This document shows, piece after piece, positions 2,833-7,919 of a stretch of DNA of 8,603 bases. Every line of letters starts with the position of its first letter. Positions within the stretch are counted from its first letter, which is position 1. The notes under the pieces are model-generated. The model was not told the DNA's origin. It searched no databases and saw only the letters and a program-made list of their open reading frames with translations. This DNA comes from Candidatus Hodarchaeota archaeon (GTDB lineage: Archaea > Asgardarchaeota > Heimdallarchaeia > Hodarchaeales > YT1-057). The stretch covers positions 1-8,603 of the forward strand of contig JAEOTI010000132.1 of the NCBI GenBank assembly GCA_016839955.1, read 5' to 3'. The position numbers and the translations under genes were made by a program.

Positions 2833-3804
2833 ATGTTCCGTGATGCTCTACAACTAAAACAAATACAAAATACTCTTCTTAGAATGATTAATGACAGACC
2901 TCGGACATCCAAAGAATTGATAGACCTTTTTGCTGTTAATTTTCCTGAAGATTATAGGAATGAAAGTGGTTTTGAAGGGTTTAACGACGCAAAACTCTTT
3001 TCTATCTTACGTCAAATGAAAGAGAAGAACTTGATTTCACAAGATCCTAGTCGACGGTGGGTACTAGTTGAAGATGGGAAAGAAGTTCTTCGTCAAGAAT
3101 CAATACTTTCATTTTCACGTATTATTCAAACAATTGGGACTTCTCTCTTTCAGAAGTATAAGCTTCTAGATTCTGTTTCACCTGATATTCAAGTAGCTGA
3201 TATCGCTCCTCTAGATTTTCCTAATTTTCCTCCACCTGCTACCGTTATTTGTTTAGAGACAATGCCAAAAGGAGTTCACTACATTATTGATATACCTCCA
3301 ACTCCCAACATTTCAGATAATGAACTAATAGAGAGAAATAAGAAATTTCATGCCGGACAAAAAAGATTAGCTGCACTGGTTCCCGATGTCAAGGTGATTT
3401 TTGGTACAATTCGAAATTCTCAAATTCAAGAATACAATGAAGAAGGAGAATACATCCTACTTGAAGATGACAGTCTTGATGAGAGTGCATCTCAATTTCT
3501 TCTTGGTTTAACTGAGGATCATCAAGTGGTGTTAGCTGAAATATACCGTGTTCTTAAACCTGGTGCATCATTTAAATTAGTAGAATACATAGCTGAAGAA
3601 TCACTGTTTCAAATACTTGTTGAAGAAGTTGCATCAATAGGTATGGAATCCTTTCCACCAATTTATCAACGTGTTCTTAACGCTGGAGTTAATCTAAATT
3701 TAGATAAAATAAAAGAAATTGTGTCTGAAAGTCCTTTTGAGATAGAACAAATCTTTTCTTTCACAAACCTTCCAGTCTTACGTTTAAGAAAACAAGAGAC
3801 ATGA
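2833..3804 (+). CDS. Winged-helix protein with methyltransferase-like C-terminal half
   Basis: A 323-aa soluble protein. Residues about 8-90 look like a winged-helix DNA-binding domain: helix (LKQIQNTLLRMIND), recognition-type helices (SKELIDLF and DAKLFSILRQMKEKNLIS), then a short wing (RRWVLVEDGKEVL). The middle is linker-like and proline-rich (about 115-138). Residues about 205-323 resemble the second half of a class I SAM-methyltransferase fold, notably EIYRVLKPGASFKLVEYI (236-253), which matches the usual 'RVLKPGG' strand-turn. No GxGxG SAM-binding motif is visible in the first half of that region (about 137-200), so catalytic activity is doubtful; it may be a degenerate ligand-sensing or protein-binding domain. 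The ATG start is the first after an in-frame TGA (2803-2805). Divergence from the transporter suggests it could regulate it. The 3' end of this gene recurs as a decayed copy at about 4910-4972. Existence is certain; the domain calls are moderate. Confidence 0.8.
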   Translation: MFRDALQLKQIQNTLLRMINDRPRTSKELIDLFAVNFPEDYRNESGFEGFNDAKLFSILRQMKEKNLISQDPSRRWVLVEDGKEVLRQESILSFSRIIQTIGTSLFQKYKLLDSVSPDIQVADIAPLDFPNFPPPATVICLETMPKGVHYIIDIPPTPNISDNELIERNKKFHAGQKRLAALVPDVKVIFGTIRNSQIQEYNEEGEYILLEDDSLDESASQFLLGLTEDHQVVLAEIYRVLKPGASFKLVEYIAEESLFQILVEEVASIGMESFPPIYQRVLNAGVNLNLDKIKEIVSESPFEIEQIFSFTNLPVLRLRKQET

Positions 3805-3805
3805 A

Positions 3806-4138
3806 TTATCTTGTTATCATTTTTACATAAAGCTTGAACCGCGTCATACCTAATTTACTTCGAAAAGGAGCAAGCCAGAGTTTTGAAGTATAAAAGTTTA
3901 CATTCTCCTTAAGATTATGTAGAGACCTATCATGGACAGAATACATGAAGGAATCTCGATCTATTCCATTCCAGAATGCTGGGAAACAGAAAACCTGGGA
4001 AGTCTCAAAAACTGGAGTAAATTTGTTGAATATACTTTGATAGTGTTCTAGAGTAGAAATTATGTCATGATGCTTTCTGAATGGTCGAAAAGCGGCAATT
4101 CTAAACTTATTATTGGAAGACGCAATAACATCATACTC
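3806..4138 (-). pseudogene. GNAT acetyltransferase paralogue remnant, 5' end lost
   Basis: A 110-codon stop-free frame on the leftward strand, bounded upstream by an in-frame TAA (4139-4141) and without any ATG, GTG or TTG in its first 64 codons. Its last 29 codons (FYTSKLWLAPF...KLYVKMITR, then stop) match the C-terminus of the intact GNAT at 4974-5681 at 21 of 29 residues. Just upstream, DRDSFMYSV aligns with DPDSLSYGV of the GNAT; further upstream, similarity fades. Reading on past the TAA in the same frame gives protein-like stretches broken by further stops (TGA at 4163-4165 and others) up to about 4258, as expected of a decaying gene. The stop codon lies 1 bp from that of the convergent winged-helix gene, exactly as in the intact copy. 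A short functional product starting at the internal ATG cannot be excluded but is unlikely. The rightward 71-codon frame over 4067-4282 is its shadow. Confidence 0.7.
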
Positions 4139-4311
4139 TTAAGAATCATCCTTACTAACTTTTCAAAATATCAACATTATAGAATGATTAATGGCTCAAA
4201 CTTGAATCTAAAGTATTTTGAATCTAAAATTATTCAAGACATAATCACTACTAGACTAACCGTAAAGAATGTTATGTGGTAAAGCGTTGCCAAGTACCCC
4301 TCTTAGAAAAT

Positions 4312-4316
4312 GGAGG
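4312..4316 (+). promoter_or_regulatory. Shine-Dalgarno site GGAGG deciding the GTPase start
   Basis: GGAGG lies 7 nt before the GTG at 4324. It places the start there, not at the upstream in-frame GTG at 4276, which has no comparable site and would add 16 residues not seen in small GTPases. Confidence 0.8.
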
Positions 4317-4323
4317 CATAAAT

Positions 4324-4875
4324 GTGAAAAAGAGAGTTCGCTTATTTAAAATTGTCATCATAGGCGATCCCCGTGTTGGTAAGACTTCTTTACGCGCACG
4401 ATATCTAGGTCATGGATTTAAAGGACAGTATCTGCAAACTCTTGGTGCTGATTTCGCTAGTTTTGAGACAACAATTGACGATACTCTGTTACGCTGGCAA
4501 ATCTGGGATCTTGCCGGGCATGCAAAATTCTCTGATGTTCTCAAGAGGTATTATTTTGGAAGCTTTGGAGCCGTTGTTGCCTACGATGTTACTCGACCAG
4601 AAACACTTGAAAATGTAATTGAGTGGGTCCATAGCGTCTGGGAATATAGTGCTATTCACCAAAAGATCCCTGTTGTTTTATTGGCCAATAAGATTGACCT
4701 AGAGGGTCAAATCGAAATCAAGGCTGAAGCAGGTTTAGAAGTTGCAAAAAAGATAGCTATTGAAAGAGATGGACCTGTTCATTTCCTTGAAACATCAGCT
4801 AAAACAGGCCATAAGGTAAATGAAGCCTTTGAAGAATTAGGGAAATTAATTATCGAATTTACAGGGAAAATTTAG
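4324..4875 (+). CDS. Rab/Ras-like small GTPase, 183 aa
   Basis: A single-domain small GTPase of normal length with all five G motifs. G1/P-loop is GDPRVGKTS (14-22). The G2 threonine is T39 in YLQTLGADF, resembling the Rab 'Y-x-x-T-I-G-x-D-F' switch I. G3 is WDLAGHAKF (61-69), G4 is NKID (122-125), and G5 is ETSAK (156-160). The residue equivalent to the catalytic glutamine of Ras (Gln61) is His66, which predicts slow or differently activated hydrolysis. The protein ends FTGKI with no C-terminal cysteine, so no prenyl anchor is possible; membrane attachment, if any, must come through partners. Such Rab-like GTPases are abundant in Asgard archaea. The GTG start is set by the GGAGG site. The gene stands alone between two decayed copies of the flanking genes, and its partner or GAP is not identifiable here. 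A T-rich stretch (about 4907-4930) downstream could end transcription. Confidence 0.93.
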   Translation: MKKRVRLFKIVIIGDPRVGKTSLRARYLGHGFKGQYLQTLGADFASFETTIDDTLLRWQIWDLAGHAKFSDVLKRYYFGSFGAVVAYDVTRPETLENVIEWVHSVWEYSAIHQKIPVVLLANKIDLEGQIEIKAEAGLEVAKKIAIERDGPVHFLETSAKTGHKVNEAFEELGKLIIEFTGKI

Positions 4876-4909
4876 TTTAATTAGGAATAACTATCAAGAT
4901 TCCAAATTT

Positions 4910-4972
4910 ATTTGTTTAATCTTTTCTTTTACACATCTTCCAGTACTACGTTAAAGATAACCAGAGAAATAA
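4910..4972 (+). pseudogene. Decayed 3' end of a second winged-helix/methyltransferase-like gene
   Basis: This is a remnant copy of the last ~20 codons of the gene at 2833-3804. From 4937 the match is ungapped and reads CTTCCAGTACTACGT, TAA, AGA, TAA, then to a terminal TAA at 4970-4972. Codons for Leu318 and Lys320 of the intact gene have become TAA by single substitutions (TTA to TAA, AAA to TAA). By hand count 29 of 37 bases agree at 3769-3805 versus 4937-4973. Upstream (about 4910-4936) FSFTHLPVLR still resembles FSFTNLPVLR. The terminal stop lies 1 bp from the stop of the convergent GNAT gene, matching the intact junction at 3804/3806. Confidence 0.7.
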
Positions 4973-4973
4973 T

Positions 4974-5681
4974 TTATCTTGTTACCATTTTTACGTAAAG
5001 TTTGAAAAGCGCCATGCCTAATCTTCTTTTAAAAGGGGCAAGCCAGCGTTTTGGAGTATAAAAAGGGTTTTCCCAAATGAGTTGGACTCCATAGCTTAGA
5101 CTATCCGGATCATCAAAGTAATTTGGAATGATTTTGCCAATTTTGAGGGACGCACGACGATAAAAACGTACCTCAGGGTCTAGAGGTTCTCCTTTTTCAT
5201 TTACGGCATTAAGATATTCTTCCGGAGTCATATGCGTATAATTTGCATAATTTGGAATTCGTCCACCAAGAATGCCCCTCTTGAGGTTATTAGAGACAGA
5301 AAAGCGACCAACTTGGTGCAATAAACGGCTTCCAGTCCTTCGTGGAGCATCAGGATGGGCAGATAAATCTACACCAAATATACTGTCACCATCAGGTACA
5401 TGAGACTTTGCGATGAATCCATTATTTGTCATTTCTTTCCAAGAGGCTACTGGGTTATCACAATCATAGAGGCACCTTTGGAAAGCAATAACCCCCATTA
5501 TCTTGGTTGTTTGATCATCTTTCACTTCAGCTACCCATACGCCTTCTGGAAACGTTCGAATACGTGAACGAAACATTTCTGGCGTAGCTTCCCCTCCCTC
5601 TGGCCAAGCTGCTTTTTCTACCTCTATTATTCTTGGAATGTCTTCTTCAAGCGCTTGTCTGATAGAAAACTTACCCTTCAC
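4974..5681 (-). CDS. GNAT-family N-acetyltransferase
   Basis: A 235-aa protein of the GNAT superfamily, which transfers acetyl groups from acetyl-CoA to an amine; the substrate is unknown. The N-terminal strand-helix (FSIRQALEEDIPRIIEVEKAAWP, in segments over 5-27) is a typical GNAT opening. The central strand before motif A is SIFGVDLSAHP (100-110), followed by the acetyl-CoA pyrophosphate-binding loop RRTGSRLL (114-121), an R-x-x-G-x-R variant of R/Q-x-x-G-x-G/A. Then follow GGRIPNYANY (139-148) and a C-terminal part with GKIIPNYFDDPDS and a WENP motif (203-206). A basic tail (KRWLAPFKRRLGMALFKLYV) ends the protein. The GTG at 5681 is the only possible start between the in-frame upstream TGA and Met36. 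It is monocistronic, with 153 bp to the next leftward gene. Its C-terminus recurs in the pseudogene at 3806-4138, so a paralogue once stood there. Confidence 0.85.
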   Translation of the reverse strand: MKGKFSIRQALEEDIPRIIEVEKAAWPEGGEATPEMFRSRIRTFPEGVWVAEVKDDQTTKIMGVIAFQRCLYDCDNPVASWKEMTNNGFIAKSHVPDGDSIFGVDLSAHPDAPRRTGSRLLHQVGRFSVSNNLKRGILGGRIPNYANYTHMTPEEYLNAVNEKGEPLDPEVRFYRRASLKIGKIIPNYFDDPDSLSYGVQLIWENPFYTPKRWLAPFKRRLGMALFKLYVKMVTR

Positions 5682-5834: not shown

Positions 5835-6389
5835 TTAGAAAGAAAAATTAGCACCATTAGTGTTTTCTAAGGATAATAGCCATTTTTTGATTTTAATATC
5901 CGGCCCGGAGCCACCAAATCCTCCTAGCTGTCCATCACTACGAATTACACGGTGACATGGGATTAAAAATGGAATAGGGTTTGATTTTAGTGCCTGACCA
6001 ACTGCTCTAGCTGCCTGAGGCCTATTTAGATCACTTGCAATCTCTCCATACGTCTTAGTCTCAGAATACGGAATTTTAGTTATATATTCCCAAATATCCC
6101 TTTGAAACTGAGTACCTACTTGATTAATATCAAGTGGAACGTCAAAATCAGTTCGAGTTCCATCAAAATATTCCGATAGTTGCCTGAGTGCTATTTCGTT
6201 AAATTTATTCGTTTCACCTTTTGCATTTTCCATATACCATTCAGGTGAGTTTTCATTCTCTTTTAATAGCGAAATTGCTTCTTTACAATGGAATTTAATA
6301 GAAAAAACACCAGATTTTGTGGATCCAATCGCAAGAAATGCAATAGGGCTTGGTGGATTAGAGTATAGACTCCATGTAACCGATTTCAT
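5835..6389 (-). CDS. O6-alkylguanine-DNA alkyltransferase (methylated-DNA--protein-cysteine methyltransferase)
   Basis: A suicide DNA-repair enzyme that moves the alkyl group from O6-alkylguanine to its own cysteine. The active-site motif IPCHRVI is present, with Cys145 counted from the ATG at 6389. The helix-turn-helix DNA-binding region precedes it (YGEIASDLNRPQAARAVG), with the arginine used for base flipping in 'ARAVG' and the conserved SNP before the active site. The post-motif glycine-rich loop is LGGFGGSG. About 184 aa is usual for the single-protein Ogt/MGMT form: an N-terminal RNase H-like domain with no extra Ada regulatory domain. An in-frame TTG four codons upstream (6401) is an alternative start; neither has a clear Shine-Dalgarno site, so ATG is preferred. 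It lies leftward, 117 bp downstream of the small RAM-like gene, and probably has its own promoter. T-runs after the stop (about 5798-5828) may act as terminator. Confidence 0.95.
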   Translation of the reverse strand: MKSVTWSLYSNPPSPIAFLAIGSTKSGVFSIKFHCKEAISLLKENENSPEWYMENAKGETNKFNEIALRQLSEYFDGTRTDFDVPLDINQVGTQFQRDIWEYITKIPYSETKTYGEIASDLNRPQAARAVGQALKSNPIPFLIPCHRVIRSDGQLGGFGGSGPDIKIKKWLLSLENTNGANFSF

Positions 6390-6518
6390 TTTGTTAACCA
6401 ATTATGTCTGGTTTTCCCTTTTCTTCTTAAACAAATCTTAGACATCATTGAAAAATGAGTAAATGTATAGAAGAGGATAATAAGATCAGATCAGGTTCGA
6501 GACTACAATTTCTCAATA

Positions 6519-6779: not shown

Positions 6780-7916
6780 TTAAAAGATTTCTTCTAAAGG
6801 ATCCATTAAATTAAACTTCTGGGTTGGTGTCGCTTCACTAATGCTATTAAGAACTTTTCTTAACAATCCTGATATTGATTCTAATCCTTCTGGTGTAAAA
6901 GTTGATGCGTGAACTGTACCTTGAAGTTGCCAACCAGTTTCAGAACCCATTTCTTTTACTTTCTTCTCGATATTACTAATGTCCCTGTCTTCTGCTAATA
7001 GATGTGTTAGAATTGCGTTTTTGATTTCATCTTTTGAAACAGACGCTGAAATGTCTGGTTCATTACCCGCTAGAGGATATTTTCGTTGCAGCGCTTCCCA
7101 AGTTGTATCTAGTTCTAAAAGAGTAGGGCGCATATCATTTAATAGTCTTAGAATTGCTTTAGGATCTCGAGAAGAGTCCACGTCTTCTTGTGGCTGAGAG
7201 ATTGCAGAGGCTAAAGCTCGTGAAGACAATCGACAATTTACTAAACTAAAACCTTGTAGAAGTTGTGTACCTTCTGAAGCACTCCCCGGGACTACCTGAG
7301 TAAAGAATTCTTTTTCTAGAGCATTAACTATTATCTGTTCCGCGATGGAAAAGGGAATTGTGTTACTTGTAATTTTCGCAAAGCGTTCAATAATTTTATA
7401 TCCCCGGCTGAAATAAGCAATTCCGCCATCTCTTGTTGCTTCTTCAATTCCATTTGCAACGACGTGTGCGAATTGGTCTAAATTCTCTCTAATAATAATA
7501 TTTAAGTCTTGTTTAGTAACTGCTATGCCAATAGGATAATCATCATATGGAATGACTGGTGACACTTCAACAGCTTGGCGAATGGATGTTTCCCAAAAAC
7601 CCTTTGTACAAGAATCTAGAACTGTTACGATGCCTTCGGCAGCTTCTCCGTGGGCCGTTCGGAGAGAACCCCATTTTTCCTGACCTCCAATTGGAAGTAG
7701 GAGTGAAAAGAAATTTCCACCTTCGTACTCAAGTTTTAGATATTCTGTTTCGATTGTTCCTCCAAATTCTTCACGGTATCGAACATTCCGATCAGTTCTT
7801 GCTGCGAGTTTTGTTGCTAAAGCTGTCTTTCCTCCGCCTTGACTACCAACAACAAGAATTCTTCCTGCACTTATTTTGTTAGTGTCAAGTCCTGGAGAAT
7901 AGTATTCATTAGTCAT
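6780..7916 (-). CDS. Divergent GTPase with Arf/MglA-like G domain and C-terminal extension
   Basis: A 378-aa protein (counted from ATG at 7916). The N-terminal ~200 residues form a P-loop GTPase. G1 is GSQGGGKT (24-31), the likely G2 threonine is T54 in EEFGGTIETEY, and G3 reads LPIGGQEKW (about 74-82). This matches the Arf/SR-beta style 'GGQ-E-K' but has proline (75) in place of the invariant aspartate that reaches Mg2+. G4 is TKQD (134-137). A loss at the same G3 position is known in MglA-type polarity GTPases. The C-terminal ~170 residues are not recognised; they contain a Leu-rich helical stretch and a final amphipathic helix pair. Specificity for guanine is supported by TKQD. ATG is preferred over the adjacent GTG (7919) because GAGGTGAT, overlapping the previous gene's stop, is then correctly spaced. 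Translational coupling with the upstream gene is likely. Role unknown; membrane trafficking or polarity functions are only guesses. Confidence 0.85.
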   Translation of the reverse strand: MTNEYYSPGLDTNKISAGRILVVGSQGGGKTALATKLAARTDRNVRYREEFGGTIETEYLKLEYEGGNFFSLLLPIGGQEKWGSLRTAHGEAAEGIVTVLDSCTKGFWETSIRQAVEVSPVIPYDDYPIGIAVTKQDLNIIIRENLDQFAHVVANGIEEATRDGGIAYFSRGYKIIERFAKITSNTIPFSIAEQIIVNALEKEFFTQVVPGSASEGTQLLQGFSLVNCRLSSRALASAISQPQEDVDSSRDPKAILRLLNDMRPTLLELDTTWEALQRKYPLAGNEPDISASVSKDEIKNAILTHLLAEDRDISNIEKKVKEMGSETGWQLQGTVHASTFTPEGLESISGLLRKVLNSISEATPTQKFNLMDPLEEIF

Positions 7917-7919
7917 CAC

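What the first reader, a model, noticed from the sequence alone, without database searches (positions are those of the whole stretch)
3769..5063. Convergent gene junction present twice with reciprocal decay, flanking a GTPase gene
About 127 bp at 3769-3895 recurs without gaps at 4937-5063 (offset 1168). By hand count there are 29/37 matches in the winged-helix-gene part and about 76/90 in the GNAT part. The 1-bp gap between convergent stop codons is kept in both. Copy 1 retains the intact winged-helix gene and a ruined GNAT; copy 2 retains the intact GNAT and a ruined winged-helix gene. The simplest reading is an ancestral tandem duplication of the gene pair with complementary loss, the Rab-like GTPase ending up (or being inserted) between. 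It is a direct record of how an accessory GTPase gene came to lie between formerly adjacent genes.
Basis: partly seen in the sequence, partly recalled or inferred. Interest (0 to 1): 0.7.

Follow-up and report, generated by a model that had tools for sequence, protein, structure and literature searches.

The report
GTPase block inserted between duplicated gene ends
In an uncultured Asgard archaeon, a one-kilobase block holding a small GTPase gene and the broken front of an unrelated enzyme gene sits between two copies of the place where two neighbouring genes meet, most likely the scar of a copy-and-insert repair event rather than of gene-pair duplication and decay.

Summary
The repeat is real and longer than reported: 3750-3895 and 4918-5063, 121 of 146 identical without gaps; 20 shuffles of the window gave at most 71. 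Each copy holds the ends of both the methyltransferase-like gene and the GNAT gene, stop codons 1 bp apart, so a convergent junction was duplicated.

'Reciprocal decay of a gene-pair duplication' is not supported. The repeat ends sharply, and the 'ruined GNAT' beyond copy 1 is a different gene: 77 N-terminal codons of a carbon-nitrogen hydrolase, cut at about the repeat edge and in frame with the GNAT tail. No convincing trace of either flanking gene's body lies in 3896-4917. Best reading: a block (hydrolase fragment, spacer, Ras-like GTPase) was inserted while 146 bp of target were doubled, by template switching or a staggered break. The GTPase has diverged from its clade's homologs more than two other window genes, as a dispersed duplicate might. 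Mechanism and donor are inferred; no host genome is held. A nice fossil junction, otherwise ordinary.

The parts
   Evidence: PF01209 20.8 bits, cut-off 20.1; PF08241 21.9 bits, cut-off 21.2; 52% to P0029 over 99%; two of its 19 other relatives bear the name Hodarchaeales (P0037, P0042)
3750..3895 (.). repeat copy 1 (J1): last 18 codons (stop included) of the methyltransferase-like gene in place, plus 30 codons (stop included) of a GNAT 3' end
   Evidence: GNAT relatives P0004 and P0006 match the GNAT part of both copies, E 2.4e-4 to 0.004
3896..4126 (-). 5' fragment of a carbon-nitrogen hydrolase (nitrilase superfamily) gene, 77 codons, in frame with the GNAT tail of J1; the codon aligned to the closest relative's start Met reads ATT, the conserved FPE reads FPA
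   Evidence: two relatives score PF00795 at 7e-18 and 4.4e-17; the fragment itself gives no PF00795 hit
4127..4323 (.). A+T-rich spacer (29.9% GC) between the fragment and the GTPase; no trace of the Fe-S gene that precedes the hydrolase in relatives
4324..4875 (+). Ras-family small GTPase, intact, 183 aa from GTG 4324 (an upstream in-frame GTG lies at 4276)
   Evidence: PF00071 7.5e-39; best hit per genome 51-57% in 12 genomes of handles G042-G055
4876..4917 (.). 42-bp tail of the inserted block (19.0% GC)
4918..5063 (.). repeat copy 2 (J2): broken methyltransferase 3' end (two TAA before the old stop) and the GNAT 3' end in place
4974..5681 (-). intact GNAT-family acetyltransferase-like gene, 235 aa
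   Evidence: 26 relatives besides itself, of which P0021-P0026 carry Pfam GNAT domains; no Pfam hit for the window protein itself

Best explanation
Ancestral state: methyltransferase-like gene and GNAT gene adjacent and convergent, 1 bp between stops. A block of about 1.02 kb from elsewhere (5' end of a carbon-nitrogen hydrolase gene, spacer, Ras-like GTPase gene and 42 bp after it) was inserted there, and in the same event 146 bp of the target were doubled. Most likely way: during repair synthesis through the junction the growing strand left its template inside the GNAT 3' end, copied the other locus, and returned to the original template 146 bp behind where it had left (template switching), or the block was captured in a break with 146-bp staggered ends that were filled in. 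Both flanking genes survived because each kept one full end. Afterwards the unused halves drifted: the methyltransferase tail of J2 gained stops, the GNAT tail of J1 and the hydrolase fragment drifted, while the GTPase kept its frame. Shown: repeat, sharp edges, identity of the fragment, intact flanking genes. Inferred: donor locus, single event, template switch or staggered break.
For: Sharp ungapped 146-bp repeat. Both copies carry both gene ends, so the genes were neighbours before duplication. P0015 (GNAT) and P0029 (methyltransferase-like, 52%, by far the closest relative) both list a longest contig of 1,899 bases from the same source; their 231 and 331 codons leave about 200 bases, so no GTPase between; 1,899 is the only length shared between 26 GNAT and 19 methyltransferase-like relatives, and the length method works in two cases that can be checked (P0031 = G042:C162, 21,068; P0013 = G185:C20, 46,038). 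The frame beyond J1 is a hydrolase N-terminus: 12 of 227 genomes match, 11 of them by 277-303-residue frames of one family, and 11 of those 11 match the window at E 1.5e-5 to 2.3e-15. No convincing GNAT or methyltransferase body inside the block. The GTPase is 50-55% to ten clade homologs that are 74-92% to one another, a larger gap than for two other window genes.
Against: No donor locus seen: in the 11 relatives the hydrolase gene follows an Fe-S gene, no relative of the GTPase lies in those loci (12 loci with about 1.5 kb flanks, L024 included), and none of 20 GTPase loci holds a relative of the hydrolase, Fe-S, GNAT or methyltransferase-like proteins. The Fe-S gene is absent from the spacer, so the block may be composite, which would need more than one switch or event. 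No genome of the host is held, so donor copy and reads cannot be checked. Hydrolase alignments run up to 24 bases into the repeat in two of 11 cases, so that edge is exact only to a few codons on the hydrolase side. Joint microhomology cannot be read without a donor.
Confidence: 0.6

Rival explanations
1. One reading: the gene pair was tandemly duplicated, then the inner GNAT body and inner methyltransferase body were deleted or replaced by the GTPase block, leaving 146 bp of junction on each side.
For: Gives the same outer arrangement; tandem duplication is common. The repeat holds both gene ends. One of four body-against-block alignments (methyltransferase body against 3896-4323) was reached by only 9 of 200 shuffles.
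Against: Needs at least two events; no convincing remnant of either body inside; edges sharp rather than decayed.
Confidence: 0.2
2. Integration of a circular or transferred DNA molecule that already carried junction J and the block, by homologous recombination at J (Campbell-type), giving J-block-J.
For: Would produce direct repeats around a foreign block in one crossover and explain 83% identity if J came from a relative (general knowledge; no call supports it).
Against: Requires a prior molecule in which the GNAT tail was already joined to the hydrolase and the GTPase tail to the methyltransferase tail; no plasmid match to J or to the fusion frame; no mobile-element protein among the eight window proteins scanned.
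Confidence: 0.1
3. Assembly chimera: the window is a contig joined wrongly at one or both block edges.
For: Both new joints lie at repeat edges; no host genome is held to check.
Against: The copies are only 83% alike, too different for ordinary overlap-based misjoining (general knowledge); base composition of fragment and GTPase is like the rest (GC 35.5 and 39.7% against 36.3%).
Confidence: 0.07
4. The in-frame hydrolase/GNAT-tail fusion (106 codons from ATT 4126) is a new expressed small protein under selection.
For: Frame open over 110 codons; about half of simulated neutral GNAT tails would have gained a stop at this divergence.
Against: No ATG, GTG or TTG at the aligned start (frame; one search lists no such frame); FPE reads FPA; differences in the tail fall almost evenly over codon positions, 4, 4, 6, and 8 codons change residue against 9.8 expected without selection.
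Confidence: 0.03

Closest known systems
Complex insertions with templated insertions and sometimes duplication at the insertion site, attributed to template switching (FoSTeS/MMBIR), in human genomes (PMC5120786; search listing and passages seen)
   Same: [quoted passage not shown] non-homologous joints
   Different: Much smaller here, in an archaeon, old (17% diverged), joint microhomology not readable, enzymes unknown
Staggered single-strand breaks with repair by end joining, leaving duplicated non-repetitive DNA at breakpoints (Drosophila inversions, PMC3355041; search listing and passages seen)
   Same: Duplicated single-copy DNA flanking a rearranged segment; one copy can stay functional while the other decays
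   Different: There the copies are inverted around an inversion (about 1 to 7 kb); here direct, 146 bp, around an insertion
Insertion sequence with target-site duplication
   Same: Direct repeats of target DNA flank an inserted block
   Different: Typical target duplications are a few to about 20 bp (recalled); no transposase among eight proteins scanned and no inverted repeat at both block ends among the 25 of 29 pairs shown
Small GTPase expansion and high gene duplication rates in Asgard archaea, notably Heimdallarchaeia with Hodarchaeales, and Lokiarchaeia (PMC10307638; passages seen)
   Same: A Ras-family gene that looks like a diverged duplicate in what seems to be that clade
   Different: Here the physical joint of one relocation can be read

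Membership tests
Tandem gene-pair duplication with reciprocal loss | remnants of both gene bodies between the two retained genes | tested here: not met
   no convincing GNAT or methyltransferase body in 3896-4917; neighbour of J1 is a hydrolase fragment
Tandem gene-pair duplication with reciprocal loss | both gene ends present in both copies of the junction | tested here: met
Transposon insertion | transposase gene and terminal inverted repeats at the block ends | tested here: not met
   no transposase among eight proteins scanned; 25 of 29 inverted pairs shown; nearest to both ends is an 11-nt pair, 91%, 3950-3960 / 4893-4903
Replicative template-switch insertion | inserted block with sharp edges plus local duplication of the target | tested here: met
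Replicative template-switch insertion | donor copy of the block still present elsewhere in the genome | not testable with these tools
   no host genome held
Replicative template-switch insertion | microhomology at the joints | not testable with these tools
   donor unknown; copies 17% diverged
Carbon-nitrogen hydrolase (PF00795) for 3896-4126 | sequence match to family members and catalytic Glu-Lys-Cys triad (triad recalled) | tested here: inconclusive
   11 relatives match, two of which were scanned and score PF00795; the fragment itself scores no PF00795 hit, holds only the N-terminal part, and the conserved Glu of FPE reads Ala
Ras-family small GTPase for 4324-4875 | Pfam Ras match and G motifs | tested here: met
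   PF00071 133.4 bits against cut-off 21.6; GDPRVGKT, DLAGH, NKID visible
GNAT acetyltransferase for 4974-5681 | GNAT Pfam domain | tested here: inconclusive
   none for the window protein, but relatives P0021-P0026 at 47-50% carry PF00583, alone or with PF13508 and others

The most novel reading that the evidence does not exclude
The block is a dispersed duplicate of a conserved clade GTPase, laid down by a copy-and-paste repair event without any mobile element; such template-switch insertions, recognisable as J-block-J scars with truncated passenger genes, could be a general route by which Asgard archaea scattered their many small GTPases.
Probability: 0.2. Interest if true: 0.55.

Novelty: new member of a known kind. 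Interest (0 to 1): 0.3.

Why it matters
Up to 2% of Asgard genes are reported to encode small GTPase homologues, and gene duplication rates in these lineages are reported to be high (PMC10307638, passages). How single copies reach new places is seldom readable. Here the passenger fragment and the doubled target mark the edges of one relocation, and a simple scan for J-block-J scars around GTPase genes in Asgard genomes would show whether it is an isolated accident or a habit.

Tried and rejected
Decayed GNAT or methyltransferase in the block: Smith-Waterman against mononucleotide shuffles and tblastn with 26 GNAT and 19 methyltransferase-like relatives. Against my reading: the methyltransferase body against 3896-4323 was reached by only 9 of 200 shuffles (one of four tests), and three related GNAT queries hit about 4238-4510 on the minus strand at E 0.006, 0.033 and 0.039, mostly antisense to the GTPase; I take both as chance. 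Fe-S gene remnant upstream of the fragment: none (best E 2.2). Transposon ends: none at both block ends among 25 of 29 pairs shown. RNA families: 0 matches at gathering scores. Junction hairpin as a conserved bidirectional terminator: weak folds, z -1.07 to -2.32, differing between the copies; not pursued. Solved structures with the fusion frame: one hit at E 0.26, chance. Viral contigs with GNAT and methyltransferase alignments: none. Plasmids with J and with the fusion frame: none. Synteny in genomes: GNAT in 3 of 227 (G169, E 7.1e-4 with five stops, dropped, leaving 2), methyltransferase-like in 12 of 227 (11 match only parts between query residues 139 and 305 at E 8.5e-5 to 9.4e-4 and were dropped; only G042 is full length); in G042, G185 and the named loci L001 and L002 the window's pair is not together. 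In one search one of 12 matches (G082, a 1,959-residue frame of another kind) was dropped as chance. The GTPase tree has support 0.222 at the window's node and is not used; one of 20 loci (L046) was not picked up by its script. Paper searches: five, of which two returned nothing.
Full report
The observation. An ungapped direct repeat at offset 1168 is present. The best 146-base pair in 20 dinucleotide shuffles of the window had 66 to 71 matches. In 20-base steps from 3500 to 4319, identity is 15-17 of 20 inside, 12 in the straddling step at 3740 and 3-11 elsewhere, so both edges are sharp. Each copy holds 18 codons of the methyltransferase-like gene's end, one base, and 30 codons of the GNAT gene's end, stops included. 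Copy 1 is the true end of the methyltransferase-like gene and copy 2 of the GNAT gene.

What lies beyond copy 1. The frame that continues the GNAT tail is open for 110 codons, 3806-4138 on the minus strand. Its first part is not GNAT. Searched in the 227 genomes held for the phylum of a Thorarchaeota genome (G001, anchor), it matched 12, best E 4.4e-15 at 38% identity over residues 5-85, the repeat beginning at residue 82. Eleven of the twelve are frames of 277-303 residues of one family; the two given to Pfam are carbon-nitrogen hydrolases, PF00795 at 7e-18 and 4.4e-17. The twelfth, G082, is a 1,959-residue frame of another kind and was dropped. All 11 family members match the window at E 1.5e-5 to 2.3e-15, between about 3872 and 4195; two run 24 bases into the repeat. 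The start methionine of the closest one (L018) aligns with ATT at 4126, and the FPE (LPE in two) conserved in the 11 reads FPA; that this Glu is catalytic is recalled. The fragment thus runs from the start codon to about the repeat edge and is cut there. The fragment itself gives no PF00795 hit.

No decayed gene pair. The GNAT body on either strand against 3896-4323, and the methyltransferase body against 3896-4323 and 4876-4917, gave scores reached by 70, 124, 9 and 48 of 200 mononucleotide shuffles; the 9 of 200 is the only one that leans the other way. Of 26 GNAT and 19 methyltransferase-like relatives the best hits in 3896-4917 are three related GNAT queries at E 0.006, 0.033 and 0.039, about 4238-4510 on the minus strand, mostly antisense to the GTPase gene. 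I take these as chance. GNAT relatives P0004 and P0006 match the GNAT tail in both repeat copies, E 2.4e-4 to 0.004.

Ancestral adjacency. The repeat itself shows it. Together the genes take 1,692 bases with stops. I could not fetch that contig, so adjacency there is inferred and chance is not excluded; the length method gives the right contig in two cases that can be checked (P0031 and G042:C162, both 21,068; P0013 and G185:C20, both 46,038).

The block. It holds the hydrolase fragment, a 197-base spacer, the GTPase and 42 bases. In the 11 relatives the hydrolase gene follows another gene on the same strand; the one scanned is an Fe-S (CCG) protein, and the C-terminal ends of all 11 look alike. 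No relative of the window GTPase lies in those loci, which have about 1.5 kb on each side, and the Fe-S gene is not in the spacer. The nearest GTPase homologs (16 of 227 genomes at E 1e-45 or better; at most 15 candidates per genome were scored) stand in other neighbourhoods: none of 20 GTPase loci holds a relative of the hydrolase, Fe-S, GNAT or methyltransferase-like proteins at E 1e-3. The window GTPase is 50-55% to ten clade homologs that are 74-92% to each other, medians 52 and 79; for the second GTPase-like gene (6780-7919) the medians are 51 and 63, for the alkyltransferase (5835-6401) 37 and 51, for the hydrolase fragment 27 and 43. So the block's GTPase has departed more than its neighbours: a duplicate or a fast evolver. 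The second GTPase-like gene matches only 8 of 227 genomes at E 1e-10, 7 of which also hold the hydrolase family (G051 does not), and two relatives of the methyltransferase-like protein are named Hodarchaeales, so the window probably comes from that part of the Asgard archaea.

Mechanism. A block with sharp edges, cut inside a passenger gene, between two copies of a short single-copy target, is explained in one step by template switching that returns behind the point of departure, or by capture at a staggered break with fill-in. Comparable processes are described in eukaryotes (PMC5120786 and PMC3355041, listings and passages seen). If the block is composite, as the missing Fe-S gene and the absence of a hydrolase-GTPase pair in relatives allow, more than one switch is needed. 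A tandem duplication followed by replacement needs two or more steps. Transposition is unlikely: no transposase among the eight proteins scanned, no inverted repeat at both ends in the pairs shown. Differences in the GNAT tail fall at codon positions 4, 4, 6 and those in the methyltransferase tail at 3, 4, 3 with two new stops in copy 2, as expected if one half of each copy drifted free.

Verdict. Observation confirmed and extended; interpretation partly right (former neighbours, later arrival of the GTPase) and wrong on the key point (reciprocal decay of whole genes). I saw no report of such a scar in archaea in the listings of four paper searches, which were few and narrow.

Noticed in passing
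4324-4875: The GTPase reads GDPRVGKT in the P-loop and DLAGH in the G3 motif, where all 19 aligned relatives have DLAGQ; by recalled Ras numbering positions 12 and 61, so its hydrolysis may be unusual.
   Followed up: partly
6780-7919: Second GTPase-like gene, P-loop GSQGGGKT, weak Ras match (PF00071 19.6 bits, cut-off 21.6), found in 8 of 227 genomes at 45-55% identity, with a second copy about 5 kb away in G045 and a partial one in G052; apparently a clade-restricted family.
   Followed up: partly
4974-5681: The GNAT family is patchy: two Thorarchaeota-type genomes of 227 and one Parcubacteria genome at 50%, plus a Nealsonbacteria protein at 47%, which suggests transfer between domains.
   Followed up: no
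4052-4252: Imperfect inverted pair 4052-4070 / 4234-4252, 19 nt at 84%, one arm in the hydrolase fragment and one in the spacer.
   Followed up: no
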